Shown here piece by piece: positions 38,532 to 50,288 of a stretch of DNA of 64,000 nt. Below the pieces are notes generated by a model that made no database searches, was not told the DNA's origin, and saw nothing but the letters and a program-made list of their open reading frames with translations. Within the stretch, counting starts at the first letter, position 1. The number at the start of each line of letters is the position of its first letter. Source of the stretch: Levilactobacillus lanxiensis (lineage in GTDB: Bacteria > Bacillota > Bacilli > Lactobacillales > Lactobacillaceae). Where the stretch lies: the NCBI RefSeq assembly GCF_016861655.1, contig NZ_BOLN01000006.1, forward strand, positions 1 to 64,000. Direction: 5' to 3'. The translations under genes were made by a program, and so were the position numbers.

Positions 38532-38584
38532 TTGCGAGAACAACCAGCTCGCGGGAGTATGATTAATCTTTGGGGGGATTGAGT

Positions 38585-40111
38585 ATGATTAGAAACATGA
38601 TTACGGCCATGGATCAGTGGGCGCTCCAAGACCCGGAACGGTTAGCTTACGATGACCTTGGTCACACAAACACTTACGGGGAATTAAAACAACGTTCAGA
38701 CGCCCTTGCGGCTCACCTGGACAGCATGGACCTACCGGCACACGCACCGATCATGGTGTACGGGGGCCAAACCTTTGACATGATGGCAACGTTCCTGGGA
38801 ATCGTCAAGAGTGGTCACGCTTATGTGCCAATCGACACGCACTCACCATTGGAACGAATTACCACGATCAATGAGATTGCGCAACCAGCTGCGGCGATTG
38901 CTGTCAGCGACTTACCAACCACATTGGGTGACACACCGGTGATTACCGCCGATGACTTAACCACAATTTTTAACCAGTCCGTCGATTATCACGTGGACCA
39001 TGGGGTTAGCGGGGATGACACCTACTACATCATCTTCACGTCAGGGACGACTGGGAAGCCTAAAGGGGTTCAGATTTCACACACCAATCTTTTAAGCTAT
39101 GTGAACTGGATGCTGAGTGACGACTTCACGTTACCAGCTAATGCCCGCACGTTATCACAAGCGCCATACTCGTTCGACCTGTCCGTCATGGATTGGGGAC
39201 CGACCTTGGCAGCTGGTGGCACGCTGGTGGCGTTACCAAAGACCGTCACGGATAACTTCCGCGCCTTGTTTGAAACCTTACCGACGATGAACCTGAACGT
39301 CTGGGTCTCAACGCCATCGTTTGTGGACATTTGCTTAATGGAGCCCACATTTGATGCCACTCATTATCCACAGCTCACCCGGTTCCTGTTCTGCGGCGAG
39401 GAATTGACTCATGCCACGGCAGCGAACCTGCACCAACGCTTCCCAAAGGCTCGGATCTTCAACACTTATGGTCCAACGGAAACCACGGTGGCGGTGACCC
39501 AGGTGGAAATTACCGAACAGATTTTAGCGGACTACCCACGGCTGCCAATTGGCTATGCCAAGGATGATACGACGATTACCGTTGTTGATGACCAGCTCCA
39601 GCCGGTGCCAGCAGGGACTGAGGGCGAGCTGATGATTAGTGGACCGTCCATGTCCAAAGGGTACCTGCACAATCCAGAGAAGACTGAAAAGGCCTTTGTG
39701 ACAGTAGACGGGAAAACGGTTTACCGCTCTGGTGACTTAGGGGTTCAATTGGACAACGGATTGATCATGTACCGTGGCCGGACTGATTTTCAAATCAAGC
39801 TTCACGGCTACCGCATTGAACTGGAAGAAGTTAACCACTACCTGTCCCAAGAGGACCACATCCAAGTGGGGGTTGCCGTGCCACGGTACGACCGCAACCA
39901 CAAGGTTAGCCAGTTGATTGCCTGGGTCGTGCCAAGCGAATCAGACATTGAAAGTGAATTAGCCCTGACCAAGGCTATCAAACAGAATTTACAGGGCGGC
40001 GACATGATGGAATACATGATTCCACAGCGCTTCGTCTACAAGGAAAGCCTACCGATGACCCCCAACGGCAAGGTTGATATTAAATCGATTATCGCCGAGG
40101 TCAATCAGTAA
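38585..40111 (+). CDS. dltA: D-alanine--D-alanyl carrier protein ligase
   Basis: DltA activates D-alanine with ATP and loads it onto DltC. The 508-residue adenylating enzyme has the P-loop YYIIFTSGTTGKPKG, FNTYGPTETTVAVT, YRSGDLG, and the C-terminal Lys in PMTPNGKVD. I chose ATG 38585; GGGGGGA lies upstream, and the in-frame codon at 38570 precedes it. The stop codon overlaps the dltB start (TAATG). Confidence 0.98.
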   Translation: MIRNMITAMDQWALQDPERLAYDDLGHTNTYGELKQRSDALAAHLDSMDLPAHAPIMVYGGQTFDMMATFLGIVKSGHAYVPIDTHSPLERITTINEIAQPAAAIAVSDLPTTLGDTPVITADDLTTIFNQSVDYHVDHGVSGDDTYYIIFTSGTTGKPKGVQISHTNLLSYVNWMLSDDFTLPANARTLSQAPYSFDLSVMDWGPTLAAGGTLVALPKTVTDNFRALFETLPTMNLNVWVSTPSFVDICLMEPTFDATHYPQLTRFLFCGEELTHATAANLHQRFPKARIFNTYGPTETTVAVTQVEITEQILADYPRLPIGYAKDDTTITVVDDQLQPVPAGTEGELMISGPSMSKGYLHNPEKTEKAFVTVDGKTVYRSGDLGVQLDNGLIMYRGRTDFQIKLHGYRIELEEVNHYLSQEDHIQVGVAVPRYDRNHKVSQLIAWVVPSESDIESELALTKAIKQNLQGGDMMEYMIPQRFVYKESLPMTPNGKVDIKSIIAEVNQ

Positions 40112-41319
40112 TGTTGTCATTTGAACCTTACGGCAACCCAACGTACTTTGCCTTGTTGGGTGTGGCGTTACTGCCACTGATGATTGGTCTTCTGTACGGC
40201 AAACGGTCACGCCTGTACGAAACGTTGATCTCAATCTTCTTTCTGGTCTTAACCTTTGGCGGTCCGAAATGGACGCAAGGGGTGGCCTTGATCATCTACA
40301 TTTTGTACGAAGTGGCGTTGACCTGGGGGTATGCCGTTTATCGCAAGCACCAAAATTCGGGGCCGATATTTTACCTGATGGTGATTCTCGCCATTATTCC
40401 GTTGACCATCGTGAAGGTCACACCCGCCGTGGAAAACGGTCAGGCTTCCCTGATTGGGTTCCTGGGGGTCAGCTACCTGACGTTCCGGGCGGTGCAAACC
40501 ATGATGGAAACGCGGGATGGCACGTTAAAAGACTATCAGGTCATGACGTTCTTACAGTTCATGCTGTTCTTCCCCACGATTTCATCTGGGCCCATTGACC
40601 GTTACCGGCGATTTGAAGCCGATTACCGGTCAGTGCCCGACCGTGAGAAATATCTCGGGATGATTCAAAAGGGGATTCGTTACATCTTCGTTGGCTTCTT
40701 GTACAAGTTCATCCTGGCGTACTACTTCGGGACAATGCTGATGCCTAAGCTACAAGTGATGGCGATGCATTCTCGGGGCGGCTTCCTGGACTTGTCGTGG
40801 CCGGTGCTGGGGTACATGTATGCTTACAGTGCTGACTTGTTCTTTGACTTCGCGGGGTACTCGTTGTTTGCCGTCGGAACGTCCTATATCATGGGCATTG
40901 CGACGCCAATGAACTTCAATCAACCGTGGCGGTCACCGAACATCAAGGATTTCTGGAACCGGTGGCACATTACCTTGTCCTTCTGGTTCCGAGACTTTAT
41001 CTACATGCGCCTGGTTTTCTGGTTCATGAAGCATAAGGTCTTCAAGAAGCCAACCACCACGGCTAACGTGACGTACATTATTAACATGTTGGTCATGGGG
41101 TTCTGGCACGGGGTCACCTGGTACTACATCACGTACGGGCTGTTCCATGGGTGTGCGTTGGTTATCAACGACACCTGGCTGCGGTACAAGAAGAAGCACC
41201 GGGCCAGTGTGCCACACAACGGCTTCACCCAAGTATTTGCCATCTTCTTAACGGCAAATATGGTCTGCTTCAGCTTCCTGATCTTCTCAGGGATGCTGGA
41301 TAAATTATGGTTTCATTAA
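40111..41319 (+). CDS. dltB: DltB, MBOAT-family D-alanyl transferase
   Basis: DltB passes D-alanine across the membrane toward DltD and teichoic acid. The 402-residue protein has about 11 hydrophobic segments and the MBOAT motifs RSPNIKDFWNRWHITLS and the conserved His in MGFWHGVTWYY. It overlaps dltA by one base, so translation is coupled. Confidence 0.98.
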   Translation: MLSFEPYGNPTYFALLGVALLPLMIGLLYGKRSRLYETLISIFFLVLTFGGPKWTQGVALIIYILYEVALTWGYAVYRKHQNSGPIFYLMVILAIIPLTIVKVTPAVENGQASLIGFLGVSYLTFRAVQTMMETRDGTLKDYQVMTFLQFMLFFPTISSGPIDRYRRFEADYRSVPDREKYLGMIQKGIRYIFVGFLYKFILAYYFGTMLMPKLQVMAMHSRGGFLDLSWPVLGYMYAYSADLFFDFAGYSLFAVGTSYIMGIATPMNFNQPWRSPNIKDFWNRWHITLSFWFRDFIYMRLVFWFMKHKVFKKPTTTANVTYIINMLVMGFWHGVTWYYITYGLFHGCALVINDTWLRYKKKHRASVPHNGFTQVFAIFLTANMVCFSFLIFSGMLDKLWFH

Positions 41320-41354
41320 GTAGGGTTATAACTATTATTTAGGGGGAAATTATT

Positions 41355-41588
41355 ATGGATATCAAAGAAACTGTTTTAGGGATTTTGAACGACTTAACGG
41401 GTAACGATGTTAGCGGCGCCATGGACGACAACTTGTTCGACAGTGGCCTGATGGACTCTATGGGGTCTGTTCAACTATTATTGCAATTACAAGGGGACCT
41501 AGGCATCAACGTGCCCGTTTCTGAATTTGAGCGGTCAGAGTGGGACACGCCCAACAAGATCATTGCGAAAGTCGAAAGTCTGGCTTAG
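41355..41588 (+). CDS. dltC: D-alanyl carrier protein
   Basis: This 77-residue acyl-carrier-like protein holds D-alanine on a phosphopantetheine arm. The attachment serine is in [12 protein letters not shown] (Ser at about 36). GGGGGAAAT precedes ATG. It is the fourth gene of dltXABCD. Confidence 0.97.
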
Positions 41589-41591
41589 CCA

Positions 41592-42881
41592 ATGGCAAAG
41601 CGATTACTACGGATCTTTGGTCCGTTAATTCTCGCGGCGATTCTGGTTTTTGCGGTGTTGGCAATGCCCGTTACCTGGGGCTTCAGTCACGTTAGCGCGG
41701 CTCGTGAACGGCAGGCGGCAGTTTCCTTGTCACCCAACGTCTTACGAGGGAAGCATATGAAGGAACAGGCGCTAAAGGATGGCTACGTGCCATTCTTTGG
41801 TTCCTCCGAGTGGTCACGGTTTGACCCCATGCATCCGTCCGTGTTGGCCCAGAAGTACAAGCGGTCTTACCGGCCATTTCTGCTGGGGGCCCGGGGCTCA
41901 CAGTCTCTGACACAGTACTTCGTGATGCAAAACATTCAGGGCGAATTGCGGAACAAGAAAGCTGTCTTCGTGATTTCACCACAATGGTTCGTGAAGAATG
42001 GGACCCGGAAAGACGCGTTTGGCTTCTACTACTCACAATTACAAACGGCGGAATGGCTGACCCATTTCCGGCACGATGCGATTGACCAGTACGCGGCCCA
42101 ACGGTTGCTCCAAATGCCCGCAGCTAATTCGGACCACTTCATCTACGCTGCGCTACAATGCGTGGCCAAGGGTGAAAAGTTGACGGATTTCCAGCGGTTC
42201 TACCTGCAAACGCGCAAGAATATGCTGACACAAGAAGACCAGTTCTTCTCCGGCATTGACCTGCCATCGCAAAACCTCAATCGGGTGAACCAGCAAGCCA
42301 AGAAGTTACCCACTCATTATTCCTACTCGGCACTGGATCGCCTGGGTGGTCAGTTAGGGAAAGCTGCGACGGGTGATAACCGATTCCACATCAGCGATAA
42401 GTTCTATAAGCAAGGGCTGAAGAAGGAATTGAAGACGGGCAATCTGAAGAACTTCCAGAAGAACCTGTCGTACACCAAGTCGCCGGAATTCGCTGACTTC
42501 CAGCTGTGTCTGGATCAATTCTCACGGTTGAACACCAACGTGCTCTTCATCATTCCACCAATCAACGCGCGGTGGCAGAAGTACACGGGCTTATCGGCCA
42601 CGATGCTCAAGCAATTTGACCAAAAGATTCACTACCAATTACAATCACAAGGGTTCAACAACATTGTTGACCTCAGCAACAAGGGGAACGTGCCGTACTT
42701 CATGACGGATACGATTCACTTGGGCTGGCGTGGTTGGTTGGCCGTCGATAAAAAGGTCAATCCGTTCCTCAGTAAGCAACAACCGCAACCGCACTACGCG
42801 ATTAGCGACAAATTCTACAGCAAGCAATGGCAGAACTTGGCGCCAAGCGATTTGAAGCAGTATGAGGCGGACAATAAATAG
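41592..42881 (+). CDS. dltD: DltD, teichoic acid D-alanyl transfer protein
   Basis: DltD is a membrane-anchored extracellular protein that finishes D-alanine transfer to lipoteichoic acid. The 429-residue protein has one N-terminal membrane helix (about 8-30). The catalytic Ser lies in PFFGSSEWSRFDP, with the partner Asp/His in FMTDTIHLGWRGW near the end. It starts 4 bases after dltC and ends with a terminator. Confidence 0.97.
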   Translation: MAKRLLRIFGPLILAAILVFAVLAMPVTWGFSHVSAARERQAAVSLSPNVLRGKHMKEQALKDGYVPFFGSSEWSRFDPMHPSVLAQKYKRSYRPFLLGARGSQSLTQYFVMQNIQGELRNKKAVFVISPQWFVKNGTRKDAFGFYYSQLQTAEWLTHFRHDAIDQYAAQRLLQMPAANSDHFIYAALQCVAKGEKLTDFQRFYLQTRKNMLTQEDQFFSGIDLPSQNLNRVNQQAKKLPTHYSYSALDRLGGQLGKAATGDNRFHISDKFYKQGLKKELKTGNLKNFQKNLSYTKSPEFADFQLCLDQFSRLNTNVLFIIPPINARWQKYTGLSATMLKQFDQKIHYQLQSQGFNNIVDLSNKGNVPYFMTDTIHLGWRGWLAVDKKVNPFLSKQQPQPHYAISDKFYSKQWQNLAPSDLKQYEADNK

Positions 42882-43067: not shown

Positions 43068-44900
43068 ATGGATCTTGAGAAATTAAAGCAACATCAAAAA
43101 TACATCCGTAACTTTTCCATCGTGGCCCATATTGACCACGGGAAGTCCACGATTGCGGACCGAATCTTGGAGTTAACGGATACCATTTCCAAGCGCGACA
43201 TGCAAGATCAAGTGTTGGATAACATGGACCTTGAGCGTGAACGCGGAATTACGATTAAATTAAACGCGGTTGAATTGACGTATCACGCCAAGGACGGCCA
43301 CGACTATGAATTTCACCTGATTGATACACCTGGGCACGTCGACTTCTCCTATGAGGTTTCACGGAGCCTGGCAGCCTGTGAAGGGGCCGTCCTGGTCGTG
43401 GATGCTGCGCAAGGGGTCGAAGCTCAGACGTTGGCCAACGTTTATTTAGCCTTGGACGACAACCTGGAAATCGTGCCGGTCGTTAACAAAATCGACCTGC
43501 CCGCCGCTGATCCCGAAAAAGTTAAGAAAGAAATTGAAGATGTGATCGGGTTGGATGCGTCCGACGCCGTTTTGGCCAGTGCCAAGCAGGGTATCGGGAT
43601 TCCAGAACTGCTGGAACAAATCGTGGCCAAGGTGCCCGCACCTAGTGGTGACTTGGATGCGCCGTTGAAGGCTTTGGTCTTCGACTCCGTTTACGATGAT
43701 TACCGGGGCGTTGTGCTGAGTGTCCGGGTATTTGAGGGTACGGTTCAACCCGGCGATAAGATTCGTCTGATGAACAGCGGTAGTGAATATGAAGTGACTG
43801 AGGTCGGGGTCAACTCGCCTAAGCCAATTTCACGCGATTACCTGATTGCCGGTGACGTGGGCTACATCACGGCCAGCATCAAGGACATCACGGATACGCG
43901 AGTGGGTGATACCGTCACCAATGCGGCTAAGCCTGCCGACAAGGCCTTGCCTGGGTACCGGGAAATGAGTCCCATGGTTTACGCCGGGCTCTATCCAACC
44001 GACAACGCGAAGTTAAACGACTTGCGTGAGGCTTTGGAAAAATTGAAGTTGAACGATGCCGCATTGGAATTTGAACCCGAAGCGTCGCAGGCGTTGGGTT
44101 TTGGGTTCCGGTGTGGGTTCTTGGGGATGCTCCACATGGACGTCATCCAGGAACGCTTGGAACGAGAATTCAACTTGGACTTGATCACCACGGCACCATC
44201 CGTTACCTACCACGCGTACTTGACGGACGGTGGCATGAAGGAAGTTGAAAACCCTGCAGAAATGCCGGAAGCTTCTGCCATTAAGCGGATTGAGGAACCC
44301 ATCGTGAAGGCCACGATTATGGCGCCTAACGAATACGTCGGGGCCGTTATGGACCTGTGTCAACACCGACGGGGCCAGTTCTTGACGATGGAATACCTGG
44401 ACGATTACCGGGTCAACATTATCTATAACATGCCGTTGTCAGAAATCATTTTTGACTTCTTTGACAAACTGAAGTCGAGCACCCGGGGCTACGCTTCCTT
44501 GGATTACGAGCGGGCCGGGTACCAACAGGCCGACTTGGTCAAGATCGATATTCTCCTGAACGGCGACAAGGTCGATGCCTTGAGCTTCATCGCGCACCGG
44601 ACCTTCGCCGCCCAACGGGGTCGTGAAATTGCGTCTCGGTTGAAGGGTATTATCCCACGCCAAAACTTTGAAATCCCTGTGCAAGCAGCTATCGGGGCTA
44701 AGATCATTGCGAGAACGACGATCAAGGCCTACCGGAAGGACGTGACCGCCAAGCTTTACGGTGGTGACCGGACCCGACGGATGAAGCTGTTAGAGAAGCA
44801 AAAGGTTGGGAAAAAGCGGATGAAGGCTGTTGGGAAAGTGGATATCCCTCAAGAAGCGTTTATGGCTGTCCTCAAAACCGATGAGGATGAAACCAAGTAG
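43068..44900 (+). CDS. lepA: Elongation factor 4 (LepA)
   Basis: LepA is a ribosomal GTPase linked to back-translocation and 30S assembly. The 610-residue protein has the G domain ([21 protein letters not shown]), EF-G-like domains, and the LepA-specific C-terminus ([23 protein letters not shown]). The Shine-Dalgarno site is weak (TAGGA). The AT-rich foreign segment starts soon after its stop codon. Confidence 0.98.
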
Positions 44901-44997
44901 TGACGCGGGTTCTAGGGGACTGCCTTTTCGGCTGCCGCCCATTTGCCTACCATTTGTCGACGGAATTGTTGGCGTGTCGACAAAATTAAATAATTTA

Positions 44998-45363
44998 CTA
45001 AGATGGTGCACTGTCAGTTCTTCTGATGGAGCACCATTTTGCGAATATGTCGACGGTCTCAGAACTCATCTTCTCAGTAACATGGGAGTATGTGTCCATT
45101 GTAGTGCTAATTCTCGCATGACCCAGTCTGGCCTGAATTTCCTTAATGTTTGTATTGTTCTCTAACACCGTAGGACGCAAAGAACGGAAATAAAACGGAA
45201 ACTCGAGCTTGTCCTGAACTTTACTAGCATGGTATTTTACGGAGTTTGGTGTAACGGAAGCCCCATTTTCCTTAGTGTTGTGGCGAAATTGAATTCTATA
45301 TAATTCTTTCCAAAACAAACGCGTTGTTCCATCTGGTCTTTGCGCTTGCAATTTACGAGTCAT
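44998..45363 (-). pseudogene. Tyrosine integrase remnant (C-terminal part)
   Basis: The 121-residue reading frame resembles the C-terminal catalytic domain of a phage or ICE integrase. IKEIQARLGHARISTTMDTYSHVTEKM is typical and keeps the nucleophile Tyr. The usual HxLRHTHA box is damaged: it reads FRSLRPTVLEN, so the first His is Arg and the second His and neighbours are missing. The N-terminal half is absent. It is AT-rich, unlike lepA. I read it as a decayed mobile-element integrase. Confidence 0.82.
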
Positions 45364-45403
45364 AATCTTAGATTTATATAGTTAAGTTATAAATTCTGAT
45401 TCT

Positions 45404-45447
45404 AACAAAAGATACACCTCTCATTGACAGAGGTGTATCTTTTGTTT
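45404..45447. terminator. Bidirectional terminator between nuclease gene and integrase remnant
   Basis: A perfect 17-bp inverted repeat ACAAAAGATACACCTCT with AGAGGTGTATCTTTTGT has a 7-base loop and A/T runs on both sides. It ends the nuclease transcript on the minus strand. Confidence 0.9.
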
Positions 45448-45460
45448 GGTCCATACCTGA

Positions 45461-46861
45461 TTAGTTAGCAGCATTTTTTTTGAGCGCTAAAGTTTCACGA
45501 TATTCTTCTGCCTCTGGATTTCGCTTAAAATCAACGGTAACGTTCTTATATTTTTTGAGTTCCTCCTCGACATCGTCAATTGAAATATTAAAGTATTCTT
45601 TTCTCCCATTGACCTTGTTGATTCGCTCGTTCGAGAATCTGTTGTGAAGCTCGGCTTCTAGTTGGTAAGCATCTTCACTGAATATAAGGGCATGTACATC
45701 AAACTTGAAGGGGACAGAGGCGCTGCCAAGTTCATTGACCCTATCCATGGGTTCGAGGCGGCGTGTTACCCCAATTTTAAAAACGTTTTTTCCAAAAGAA
45801 CCGATATTTGAGATGATATAAACGTATCCCGCAGTTGCGTGCTGTTCTCGATAATCAACTTCAGATTTTTGACTGTGTTGGTCGGCTAATTCGACTTTGA
45901 GCTTTTCGATTTCATCTAACAGACTTTGATTATTCGGGTCTTCTCTTGATTTTGCTTCGAGCTCACTAATTGCCTGAGAATAATGATGAATTTCTTTATC
46001 AATTTGTTTGCGTTTGGCCGCTATTTCACGTTGTAGGGCCTTTTCTTCTCGTTCTTTTGCTCGTTCTTCTCGGAGTAATTCTTTTTCTTCCTGAACTTTT
46101 TGTCGATATTCAAATGCTAAGTTAAGTTCCTTTATTTTTAAGTTCAGATATTCTGTGCTTAATTTGACATAAACAACATCATACATCTTGTTGTGTTGTT
46201 CAAAAGAGCGTTGAATACGTTTCTCGATTCGATCAAAGTTGGAGTAAGTAGCTTTACTGATAGCTTCTGTACATTCGTTGTTAAAGCTGCGTAGAATTGC
46301 TTTGACATTATTACGGTTCATTTTTCTACCTTGAGCCGAGCTGTTGTTTACAAGCCAATTTTCATTGCAACTAGCTGCAGTTTTATCTCGTATCATACGC
46401 TTCTGGCTATCACGAATTTCCGCCAAGACATTTTTATAATCTAAAGCCGTAGCAAAATCATACTGAGGCTTGTATAGTCCGTAAGAACTCATCTCTAAGT
46501 CTGGTTCTAAATCACTAATATCAGCACGTATGCTTTCCTTCTTCTGATTTAGTTCTTTAAGTTGATTTTCAAGCGATTTAATTTTGATATTTCTAGTGTC
46601 AGCTGTTTTTTTAAATTTTGTTTTGAGCTGTTCCTCATTCTCTTTTAGATTAGATAATTCTTGCTTTTCTGATTCTATCATTTCACTAAGCTTTAGAGGT
46701 TCCAGTTCATGGATAGAAAGCTTCAAATTTGCCTTCTTAGTTAACTCTTGTATTGAGTGTTCCAGCTCGATATTCATTCTTGAGAGTGCGTCGTTAGTTT
46801 CTTTTAAGTGTGCAATTTCATTTTTGAATTTTGAAGTTTTAAATATATCACTAAATGCCAT
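45461..46861 (-). CDS. DUF4041 / GIY-YIG (T5orf172) nuclease, SNIPE-like anti-phage candidate
   Basis: The 466-residue protein has a coiled coil (about 13-125), a DUF4041 domain (about 125-275, with the conserved segment YGLYKPQYDFATALDYKNVL and GRKMNRNNVKAILRSFNNE) and a second charged helix (255-330). A C-terminal GIY-YIG nuclease of the T5orf172/MUG113 type starts near 343 (GYVYI, KIG, Arg in TRRLEPMDR, Glu in LEAELHNRF). This domain pair is that of SNIPE, a nuclease reported to cut phage DNA during entry. No N-terminal membrane helix is visible here, unlike the described protein. AGGAGG precedes ATG. The gene is AT-rich and beside a dead integrase, which suggests transfer. The anti-phage role is inferred. 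Confidence 0.85.
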   Translation of the reverse strand: MAFSDIFKTSKFKNEIAHLKETNDALSRMNIELEHSIQELTKKANLKLSIHELEPLKLSEMIESEKQELSNLKENEEQLKTKFKKTADTRNIKIKSLENQLKELNQKKESIRADISDLEPDLEMSSYGLYKPQYDFATALDYKNVLAEIRDSQKRMIRDKTAASCNENWLVNNSSAQGRKMNRNNVKAILRSFNNECTEAISKATYSNFDRIEKRIQRSFEQHNKMYDVVYVKLSTEYLNLKIKELNLAFEYRQKVQEEKELLREERAKEREEKALQREIAAKRKQIDKEIHHYSQAISELEAKSREDPNNQSLLDEIEKLKVELADQHSQKSEVDYREQHATAGYVYIISNIGSFGKNVFKIGVTRRLEPMDRVNELGSASVPFKFDVHALIFSEDAYQLEAELHNRFSNERINKVNGRKEYFNISIDDVEEELKKYKNVTVDFKRNPEAEEYRETLALKKNAAN

Positions 46862-47123
46862 ATGAAATTTCCTCCTAGTAGGTATGGGCCAATGATTGTA
46901 GGTCCCAATCGATGATGTCCAAATTATATGTGGCTAATGTATTCATTATGACACATGAATATACTGCTGGGAAGATGTGGGATTTTTTATTGCTCCCCGT
47001 TTGTTTAGAAACTAAGCTTTCCAGACAAGTCATCCCCCATACATCACTAACCCAATCAATGGTAATCTACAGATATATTTAGCGACGTTAGACAACTGAA
47101 GGACGATTGAGGGGGAGTAGCGC

Positions 47124-47366
47124 ATGACTAAGGGACTAGCATTTGCGTTTCATGGGGGACCAACCGCGTTTATTGATCGATTGGCCATTGTCATCGACGA
47201 CCTGGATGACGAAGACTTGAAAATTTTGGAACAGGTTTGTGAATGGTCATGGACGAATCACTGTGTCATTCCGGTGGAGAGCTTTCGGTTATCACCAACT
47301 GAGGTCGAATGGCGGTTAACTAAGCTGGAACGGTTAGAACTGTTGGATCTTGGAGAACGCGTTTAA
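47124..47366 (+). CDS. Hypothetical small acidic protein
   Basis: This 80-residue acidic cytosolic protein is rich in Leu and Glu; I do not recognise it. The second half (ESFRLSPTEVEWRLTKLERLELL) could form a winged-helix-like helix pair, but this is weak. GAGGGGGAG lies 7 bases before ATG, and a strong terminator follows. Base composition returns to that of the core genome here. No function is assigned. Confidence 0.7.
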   Translation: MTKGLAFAFHGGPTAFIDRLAIVIDDLDDEDLKILEQVCEWSWTNHCVIPVESFRLSPTEVEWRLTKLERLELLDLGERV

Positions 47367-49427: not shown

Positions 49428-50288
49428 TTAACTGGCTTGACTGTAGCCGGTGGCGTAGTCAATCGTGTAACCAGGTTCGACGTTAAAAATGTAGACGTTG
49501 AAGTGAATCTCGTTGGAGCCTAACGACTGCGCCCGCATTTGGACCCCACGGGCGACCAATTCACTACCCCGAAAAATGGGGGTCACGGTGTAACGCACGT
49601 AATGGGCCTTGCTAGCGTGGAGGTAGGTGGCGACGTCCATTTCGTTGTGTAGCATGAGCGGGCTGTTCAGGGTCCGCGTCCCAGTCATCAGGTTCTTCGG
49701 ATTGTTATTTTGACCGGTAAATTGGTAGCCGATTAAATGACTCCGGTTGTACAACCAGCCGTGATGCGTGCGCTTGTTGTGCCAGCCGGTCGGATCGACG
49801 GTCAGAGATTCCCGCTTGGCACTCGGCATCAGCGACTGATTCAACAGAGCTTCGGCGCCGGTGACCCGGTTTTGACTGTCGAGATTGTGATACGTTTGCC
49901 AGGCACCATGGGCCTTGGACAGTTGTTTGCGACTAAAGCCCGGATTGTTGTGGTTGACGGTAATCTCCTGTTGGCCCGCGTAGGTGAGGGCGGCAAGGTT
50001 CGTGGTGGCCGCCGACTTGGTGGACCGTTTAGCGGCTGGTTTCTTCTTGGCGGATTTTTTAAGCTTGGCCTTGCGGTGGGCCAGGGACTTCTGCTCACTG
50101 GCTAGGCGGGCACTCTCAGCGGAATTGGCCTGCTCTAATTTTTTAGCCTGCTTTTGGGGCTGATGATCATAAACGACCTTGGTGCTGGTCGCATCGGCTG
50201 CGGCGGACTGTTTGTTATGGGTACAGCCGCTGAGCCCGATAAGTGCCAGACTCAGCAGTGTGGCCGTGATAGCGGTTAATTTTTTCAT
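49428..50288 (-). CDS. Lipoprotein DNA/RNA non-specific endonuclease (EndA/Spd type)
   Basis: The 286-residue precursor has a lipoprotein signal (LIGLSGC, lipid on Cys about 22) and a Lys/Ala-rich linker (about 30-95). The C-terminal beta-beta-alpha metal nuclease domain shows the active-site motif NRSHLIGYQF, the variant of DRGH seen in streptococcal secreted DNases, with Asn in NNNPKNLMTGTR. It probably degrades extracellular DNA or acts in DNA uptake. It directly follows the 50290 gene (start 1 base after that stop codon), so they form an operon. Confidence 0.92.
   Translation of the reverse strand: MKKLTAITATLLSLALIGLSGCTHNKQSAAADATSTKVVYDHQPQKQAKKLEQANSAESARLASEQKSLAHRKAKLKKSAKKKPAAKRSTKSAATTNLAALTYAGQQEITVNHNNPGFSRKQLSKAHGAWQTYHNLDSQNRVTGAEALLNQSLMPSAKRESLTVDPTGWHNKRTHHGWLYNRSHLIGYQFTGQNNNPKNLMTGTRTLNSPLMLHNEMDVATYLHASKAHYVRYTVTPIFRGSELVARGVQMRAQSLGSNEIHFNVYIFNVEPGYTIDYATGYSQAS

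What the first reader, a model, noticed from the sequence alone, without database searches (positions are those of the whole stretch)
45461..46861. DUF4041/GIY-YIG nuclease similar to the SNIPE phage-entry defence protein
The domain order (coiled coil, DUF4041, T5orf172-type GIY-YIG) is that of SNIPE. Here it is the only apparent cargo of an AT-rich segment next to a dead integrase. Unlike the described membrane-bound protein, no N-terminal membrane helix is visible, so localisation may rely on the coiled coil or a partner. A lactobacillar version would be a new branch to test.
Basis: partly seen in the sequence, partly recalled or inferred. Interest (0 to 1): 0.75.

Follow-up and report, generated by a model that had tools for sequence, protein, structure and literature searches.

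The report
TM-less SNIPE-family anti-phage nuclease
A lactic acid bacterium carries, on a decayed prophage scrap, an intact relative of SNIPE, a nuclease that cuts phage DNA as it enters the cell; it lacks the usual membrane helix and instead starts with a short conserved 'cap' that seems to have alternated with that helix many times in evolution.

Summary
Window 45461-46861(-) encodes an intact 466-aa protein with long helices, DUF4041 and T5orf172/GIY-YIG. It matches PADLOC's PD-Lambda-1 (= SNIPE) over residues 23-464 (E 9e-140), keeps the catalytic Glu (E402 = SNIPE E414) and has no membrane helix. It lies beside a truncated integrase at a site behind lepA that holds different cargo in sister species. 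'New branch' is not supported: a Lactobacillus phage has a full-length homologue, 26 of 397 Lactobacillaceae genomes have matches, 34% of published SNIPE homologues lack a membrane helix (PMC13190303), and a Streptococcus thermophilus PD-Lambda-1 already protects by >3 logs (PMC12322248).

New here: helix-less homologues mostly begin with one of two short caps, M[GS]hxDhFKxxxFK (the window's) or M[GS]LFxxK. In a fresh set 21 of 21 helix-less and 0 of 9 helix-bearing proteins had a cap, against 29 of 566 other ORFs. A tree of the C-terminal part needs 12 changes of the helix state (7 forced by well-supported branches); one origin is rejected (p 7e-6). I propose that the cap does the helix's job, as DivIVA's Phe/Arg loop does. 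Hydrophobic moment supports this only weakly; localisation is untested.

The parts
45461..46861 (-). SNIPE/PD-Lambda-1-family gene, 466 aa, intact
46870..46876 (-). Shine-Dalgarno AGGAGGA, 8 nt before the ATG
   Evidence: read; scored as a 6-base match
46805..46861 (-). N-terminal cap, residues 1-19 (MAFSDIFKTSKFKNEIAHL), 'tag' type
46484..46852 (-). long N-terminal helices, residues 4-126 (coiled coil by inference)
46136..46303 (-). DUF4041, residues 187-242
45551..45829 (-). T5orf172/GIY-YIG nuclease, residues 345-437
45656..45658 (-). catalytic Glu codon, E402 (SNIPE E414)
45404..45446. 18-bp perfect hairpin with 7-nt loop between the gene and the integrase scrap; perhaps a two-way terminator (the consensus scan listed no terminator)
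   Evidence: read; part of repeat I1
44998..45363 (-). C-terminal remnant of a tyrosine integrase
46992..46993 (.). right edge of the insertion: homology to both sister species resumes here

Best explanation
The gene is an intact, helix-less member of the SNIPE (PD-Lambda-1) family, left behind by a prophage or similar element that once integrated behind lepA. Shown by comparison: family membership, intact catalytic and DUF4041 residues, place of many homologues beside integrases, absence of a membrane helix, and a conserved N-terminal cap that alternates with the membrane helix across the family. Inferred: the protein sits at the inner face of the membrane, held there by several copies of the cap (a Phe next to a Lys, shown at the tip of a coiled coil, as in DivIVA) or by a partner that the cap docks to; DUF4041 meets the tape measure protein and DNA of an entering siphophage; the GIY-YIG domain cuts that DNA during entry. 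The host chromosome would be spared because the enzyme is kept away from the nucleoid. I put family membership at about 0.95, anti-phage action at about 0.75, and the cap as the localising element at about 0.5.
For: PADLOC PD-Lambda-1 E 8.8e-140 over residues 23-464. PhiR26_1 PD-lambda-1 is SNIPE or very near it: 9 of 9 residues named in passages of the paper (E223, N250, L253, W257, E264, K305, I308, T319, E414) have the named letter. E402 is invariant in the 27 rows of A2. Full-length homologue in Lactobacillus phage PLE3 between repressor/protease genes and integrase. S. thermophilus PD-Lambda-1 EU01: >3-log protection against some phages, lost on removal of the integrated gene (PMC12322248 passages). 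SNIPE without its membrane helix is toxic through its nuclease (PMC13190303 passages), so helix-less homologues need another restraint. Cap: strict regex in 29 of 58 helix-less and 0 of 22 helix-bearing NR80 homologues; same regex on a fresh set 9 of 21 and 0 of 9; either cap 21 of 21 and 0 of 9; background 16 and 29 of 566. Membrane-helix state: 12 changes on a 104-row tree, 7 forced by starred branches; one clade rejected, p-AU 6.8e-6. DivIVA precedent: coiled coil capped by loops showing F17 and K15/R18, the Phe inserting into the bilayer (PMC3924036 passages).
Against: No experiment here on cutting, phage defence or localisation. The cap is not a strong amphipathic helix: over residues 2-12 its mean hydrophobic moment equals that of other soluble N-termini (0.322 and 0.322; the window's own 0.371), over 9 residues it is 0.529 against 0.354 with 18% of the background as high, and over 13 or 18 residues it is lower than background. 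D5 is fixed in the cap alignment (the regex allowed only D or N there), which suits a docking motif as well as a lipid anchor. AlphaFold2 confidence for residues 1-10 is low (mean 53). PMC12322248 also reports a 98.5%-identical homologue with no activity, so homology does not prove activity. No PDB relative reached E 0.001 by fold.
Confidence: 0.72

Rival explanations
1. The cap is a docking motif for one host or phage protein at the membrane (an entry channel or division protein), not a lipid anchor.
For: Favoured letters D5, F7, K8, K13 rather than free hydrophobic variation; unexceptional hydrophobic moment; SNIPE itself associates with ManYZ and needs no lipid anchor for that (PMC13190303 abstract).
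Against: Two unlike caps (tag and M[GS]LFxxK) and membrane helices alternate across the tree, easier to explain by a common target such as the bilayer; no partner is known.
Confidence: 0.35
2. The helix-less proteins are cytoplasmic and restrained otherwise (auto-inhibition by the coiled coil, activation by a phage protein); the cap merely ends or staples the coiled coil.
For: Membrane-localised SNIPE is reported to be auto-inhibited (PMC13190303 passage); AlphaFold2 draws residues 4-51 as one helix.
Against: The cap was found in no helix-bearing homologue of either set (0 of 22 by the strict regex; 0 of 9), though several of these also have long helical N-terminal regions by their letters; SNIPE without its membrane helix is toxic.
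Confidence: 0.3
3. A prophage gene for something other than defence, such as a homing-type or replication nuclease.
For: PLE3's record notes 'replication' for its homologue; GIY-YIG domains occur in homing enzymes (PMC1564403, start of abstract in the search listing only).
Against: Match to PD-Lambda-1 over nearly the whole length; place next to repressor and integrase genes, read in the integrase direction, in many homologues; a streptococcal homologue defends.
Confidence: 0.1
4. A silent relic: the element is lost and the gene is drifting.
For: The integrase is truncated and no repressor or protease gene was seen beside it. Four other Lactobacillaceae genomes show broken or partial copies (G324, G255, G096, G405), some perhaps only contig ends.
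Against: Open frame, ribosome-binding site and the invariant residues are intact. Selection was not measured: the nearest homologues are about 65-69% identical, too far for that.
Confidence: 0.15

Closest known systems
SNIPE / PD-lambda-1 of E. coli (PADLOC PD-Lambda-1; PMC13190303, PMC9519451)
   Same: Long helices, DUF4041, long helix, GIY-YIG; catalytic Glu at the same place; also carried by a phage (PhiR26_1); 41% identity over 86% of the query by tblastn
   Different: SNIPE has an N-terminal membrane helix; the window protein has a 13-19-residue cap instead; W257, where W257R raised Bas14 defence, is N247 here
Helix-less SNIPE homologues reported by Saxton et al. (34% of 474)
   Same: No predicted membrane helix
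   Different: The paper links them to DivIVA-, T3SS-ATPase-, PH- and DUF4428-like N-termini; the short caps are not described in the parts I read, and its Supplementary Table 3 could not be read
PD-Lambda-1 EU01 of Streptococcus thermophilus (PMC12322248)
   Same: Same named system, in a lactic acid bacterium, shown to protect against some streptococcal phages
   Different: Its sequence and N-terminus were not examined here
PHROG 1847 (unknown function)
   Same: Match over residues 2-464, E 5e-150
   Different: The family bears no function in PHROGs; this work suggests SNIPE
DivIVA N-terminal domain
   Same: Coiled coil whose tip shows a Phe next to a basic residue (PMC3924036 passages)
   Different: No sequence homology shown; analogy only

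Membership tests
SNIPE / PD-Lambda-1 | Profile match over nearly the full length | tested here: met
   PADLOC E 8.8e-140, residues 23-464 against model 37-476 of 491
SNIPE / PD-Lambda-1 | DUF4041 domain | tested here: met
   PF13250 E 4e-19, 68.7 bits, cut-off 27
SNIPE / PD-Lambda-1 | C-terminal GIY-YIG nuclease with catalytic Glu (E414 in SNIPE) | tested here: met
   PF10544 E 1.1e-18; E402 aligned with E414 and invariant in the 27 rows of A2
SNIPE / PD-Lambda-1 | N-terminal membrane helix (prototype; 66% of the published homologues, so not defining by the authors' own use of the name) | tested here: not met
   Maximum 19-residue Kyte-Doolittle mean 0.18 in the first 110 aa; PMC13190303 section 9
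SNIPE / PD-Lambda-1 | Membrane localisation | not testable with these tools
   Only indirect: a conserved cap in place of the helix
SNIPE / PD-Lambda-1 | Cuts phage DNA during injection; protects against siphophages | not testable with these tools
   Known for E. coli SNIPE (abstract); protection known for a S. thermophilus PD-Lambda-1
Homing GIY-YIG endonuclease | Insertion into an intron, intein or specific target gene | tested here: inconclusive
   The gene is free-standing between an integrase remnant and the insertion edge, but free-standing homing enzymes exist (recall) and no intron search was run

The most novel reading that the evidence does not exclude
SNIPE-family nucleases use two short N-terminal caps, M[GS]hxDhFKxxxFKxEI and M[GS]LFxxK, as exchangeable replacements for the membrane helix. 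In the course of evolution prophages have repeatedly traded membrane helix for cap in front of the same DUF4041-nuclease, so self/non-self discrimination by place does not need a membrane-spanning segment.
Probability: 0.45. Interest if true: 0.65.

Novelty: new member of a known kind. Interest (0 to 1): 0.48.

Why it matters
SNIPE spares host DNA because it is tethered to the membrane, yet a third of its published relatives lack a membrane helix. A short, conserved, exchangeable cap gives that puzzle a concrete test: two residues (F7, K8) and one tag-swap. It also suggests a function for PHROG 1847 and marks the lepA-downstream site of Levilactobacillus as a place where integrase-linked elements leave different cargo genes.

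Tried and rejected
Classic amphipathic membrane helix (PspA-like, an idea from recall): only weakly supported, see the hydrophobic-moment figures; PspA itself was not compared. Lipid-binding score (HeliQuest-type D; formula and hydrophobicity scale from recall): the values of helix-less and helix-bearing rows overlap widely.

Cap as a mobile module on other proteins: a 26-column profile searched in 251 Lactobacillaceae genomes gave E below 1e-9 in six places, all six SNIPE homologues (one is the window's own). The other 18 places had E 0.005-0.05. One of these (G255) is the out-of-frame start of a SNIPE copy. A motif look at the 18 loci showed no other protein that begins with the cap, but printed nothing for 12 of them, so this is a loose negative.

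Attachment-site repeat: no shared word of 9 or more bases between 44781-45100 and 46851-47124. Solved relatives by sequence: one hit, apolipoprotein A-I, E 0.0027, taken as coiled-coil chance. Foldseek: Slx1 (a GIY-YIG enzyme) first, but at E 0.13; the VIA-align rows are dominated by the long helix 272-341 and say nothing on the nuclease. Promoter-like sites: 11 against 6.3 +/- 2.8 in shuffles, not used.

Limits of the cap counts: the regexes were written after I had seen the whole first set; my notebook entry 2 says 'fixed on Lactobacillaceae', which is wrong. In one search twelve rows were listed for judging by eye, of which eleven were in the set (7 to tag, 1 to membrane helix, 3 to unknown); two of the seven have no normal in-frame start (L018, L081). 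In one search the three regexes were unchanged, but the tag class there is the union of the two tag regexes, and the start search was bounded a little differently. Of 85 new ORFs, 50 with 80% or more identity to old ones and five redundant ones were dropped; one locus (L258) gave two of the 30 fresh ORFs. Related sequences are not independent, so the Fisher values are not true probabilities. One search leaves out six rows (three long branches, three unknown N-termini). All trees are 'quick' ones with many open forks. In one search the printed '38 of 81' viral loci includes the window by a sorting slip; it is 37 of 80.

Full report
WHAT IS THERE. Window 45461-46861(-) is an intact 466-codon gene with a good ribosome-binding site. 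Its protein carries DUF4041 and a T5orf172/MUG113 GIY-YIG domain after about 120 residues of predicted helix. It matches PADLOC's two PD-Lambda-1 models over nearly its full length (8.8e-140 and 7.7e-129) and PHROG 1847 (5e-150). It is the only match in its genome. No membrane helix is predicted by hydropathy.

WHICH FAMILY. PD-lambda-1 was found in a functional selection in E. coli; [quoted passage not shown] It was later named SNIPE (PMC13190303: outline and abstract, passages, section 9 in full). The PhiR26_1 protein annotated 'PD-lambda-1' agrees with the paper's numbering at 9 of 9 residues named in the passages seen. Its E414 aligns with E402 of the window protein, and the 27-row alignment keeps this Glu in every row. 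Of three positions named for Bas14-enhancing changes, W257 is N247 here, E223 is E213 and I308 is I298.

WHERE IT SITS. The gene is in a 35-40% GC stretch of an otherwise about 50% GC window, next to the C-terminal end of a tyrosine integrase. The genus is Levilactobacillus by inference: the same-genus genomes G012 and G345 have contigs of exactly the length of named L. wangkuiensis and L. mulengensis contigs with the same homologue. Homology to G345 runs to 45099 and to G012 to 44899 (the end of lepA), and resumes at 46993 and 46992. Between these points the sisters carry other things. G345 keeps the last 100 bp or so of the integrase scrap and a 182-aa protein without a Pfam match. G012 has an ORF that reads like an integrase, a DUF1828/DUF1829 gene, a DUF6978 gene and a 299-aa protein with a secretion-like start. 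A third relative, G011, has there a 378-aa integrase with repressor (HTH_3), M78 protease and a SHOCT-domain protein. So the site behind lepA is an insertion hotspot, and the window holds a decayed occupant. G012 and G345 carry their own SNIPE homologue (65-69% identity) elsewhere, after a repressor-like gene and before a complete integrase.

RELATIVES. 26 of 397 Lactobacillaceae genomes, the window's own included, have a match at E up to 0.001; at least four of these are fragments or broken (G096, G405, G324, G255). In wider samples 12 of 398 genomes of the class have PF13250 and 11 of 348 of the phylum match the profile, five of them only weakly at E above 1e-6; both counts include the window's own genome. 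Lactobacillus phage PLE3 holds a homologue (45% identity, full length) between repressor/protease genes and the integrase; in Streptococcus phage Javan633 it lies between a repressor and the integrase. A tyrosine integrase lies downstream on the same strand, within the DNA held, in 11 of 22 Lactobacillaceae loci and 37 of 80 viral loci (only integrases like the three seeds are counted, and many flanks are cut). A S. thermophilus PD-Lambda-1 gives >3-log protection against some phages of three genera, while a 98.5%-identical one gives none (PMC12322248 passages).

THE CAP. Saxton et al. report that 34% of 474 homologues lack a predicted membrane helix, and that SNIPE without its helix is toxic through its nuclease. 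Many helix-less proteins collected here share a start: M[GS]hxDhFKxxxFKxEIxxL. From 117 distinct proteins, 108 of at least 370 aa gave 80 at 80% identity; with starts chosen by Shine-Dalgarno match, a strict regex hits 29 of 58 helix-less and 0 of 22 helix-bearing proteins. Eight of 560 other ORFs of the same loci match it. With eleven N-termini judged by eye, the 80 are 37 tag, 23 membrane helix, 9 'short' (M[GS]LFxxK and the like), 8 other and 3 unknown. One of the 8 others (L027) has a cysteine-rich start that looks, by eye, like the DUF4428 kind named in the paper.

VALIDATION. Two further scans of viral contigs gave 85 distinct ORFs, 30 of them fresh after removing relatives at or above 80% and redundancy. 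With the regexes unchanged: 9 membrane helix, 10 tag, 11 short, 0 other. Strict tag 9 of 21 helix-less; either cap 21 of 21; neither cap in any of the 9 helix-bearing; background 16 and 29 of 566 soluble ORFs.

EXCHANGE. On trees built from the part after residue 124, so without the N-terminus, membrane helix and caps are interleaved: 10 changes for the helix in 80 rows (7 forced by starred branches), 14 in 110 (8 forced), 12 in 104 after removing long or unknown rows (7 forced). Holding the 31 helix-bearing rows together is rejected (p-AU 6.8e-6). Neighbouring rows differ, such as L133 (helix) with L158 (tag), L076 with L139, L153 with L135, and L136 in one small group with L143 and L126 (supports of the pair forks 83-86). 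Counts of changes cannot tell gain from loss, and the exact number is soft.

WHAT THE CAP MIGHT DO. The favoured Phe-Lys pair at the tip of a coiled coil recalls DivIVA, whose N-terminal coiled coil is capped by loops showing F17 and K15/R18, the Phe inserting into the bilayer (PMC3924036 passages). Against a simple lipid anchor: the hydrophobic moment is ordinary over 11 residues and only mildly raised over 9, and D5 is fixed. A docking motif remains nearly as likely. The cap profile was significant (E below 1e-9) only in SNIPE homologues among 251 Lactobacillaceae genomes.

NOVELTY. The gene is a new member of a known family; helix-less members were known. The caps and their exchange with the membrane helix were not in the texts I saw: text searches; the word 'amphipathic' does not occur in the SNIPE paper's main text, which I read only in part. 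Supplementary files could not be read. Three held papers contain 'DUF4041'; one of them, PMC12904381, I saw only in listings.

Noticed in passing
window 44900-46992; L049, L050, L051: The region behind lepA is an insertion hotspot in Levilactobacillus with different cargo in each relative examined (a SNIPE homologue; a 182-aa protein; DUF1828/DUF1829 plus DUF6978; a SHOCT protein with a complete integrase).
   Followed up: partly
window 45404-45446: Perfect 18-bp hairpin with T-rich flanks on both strands between the gene and the integrase remnant; perhaps a two-way terminator.
   Followed up: no
window 49428-50288 (-): 286-aa protein with Pfam Endonuclea_NS_2 (E 2.5e-37) and a lipoprotein-like start, a likely surface DNA/RNA nuclease.
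   Followed up: no
window 38570-42881 (+): Four consecutive genes that read like a D-alanylation (dltABCD) operon; the names come from recall, not from a search.
   Followed up: no
PHROG 1847: A phage protein family of 'unknown function' that the SNIPE homologue matches over nearly its full length; SNIPE is a likely function.
   Followed up: partly
G255 C16:8652-9966; G324 C46:69-1393: Broken or split copies of the same gene in other Lactobacillaceae, showing that the gene also decays.
   Followed up: no
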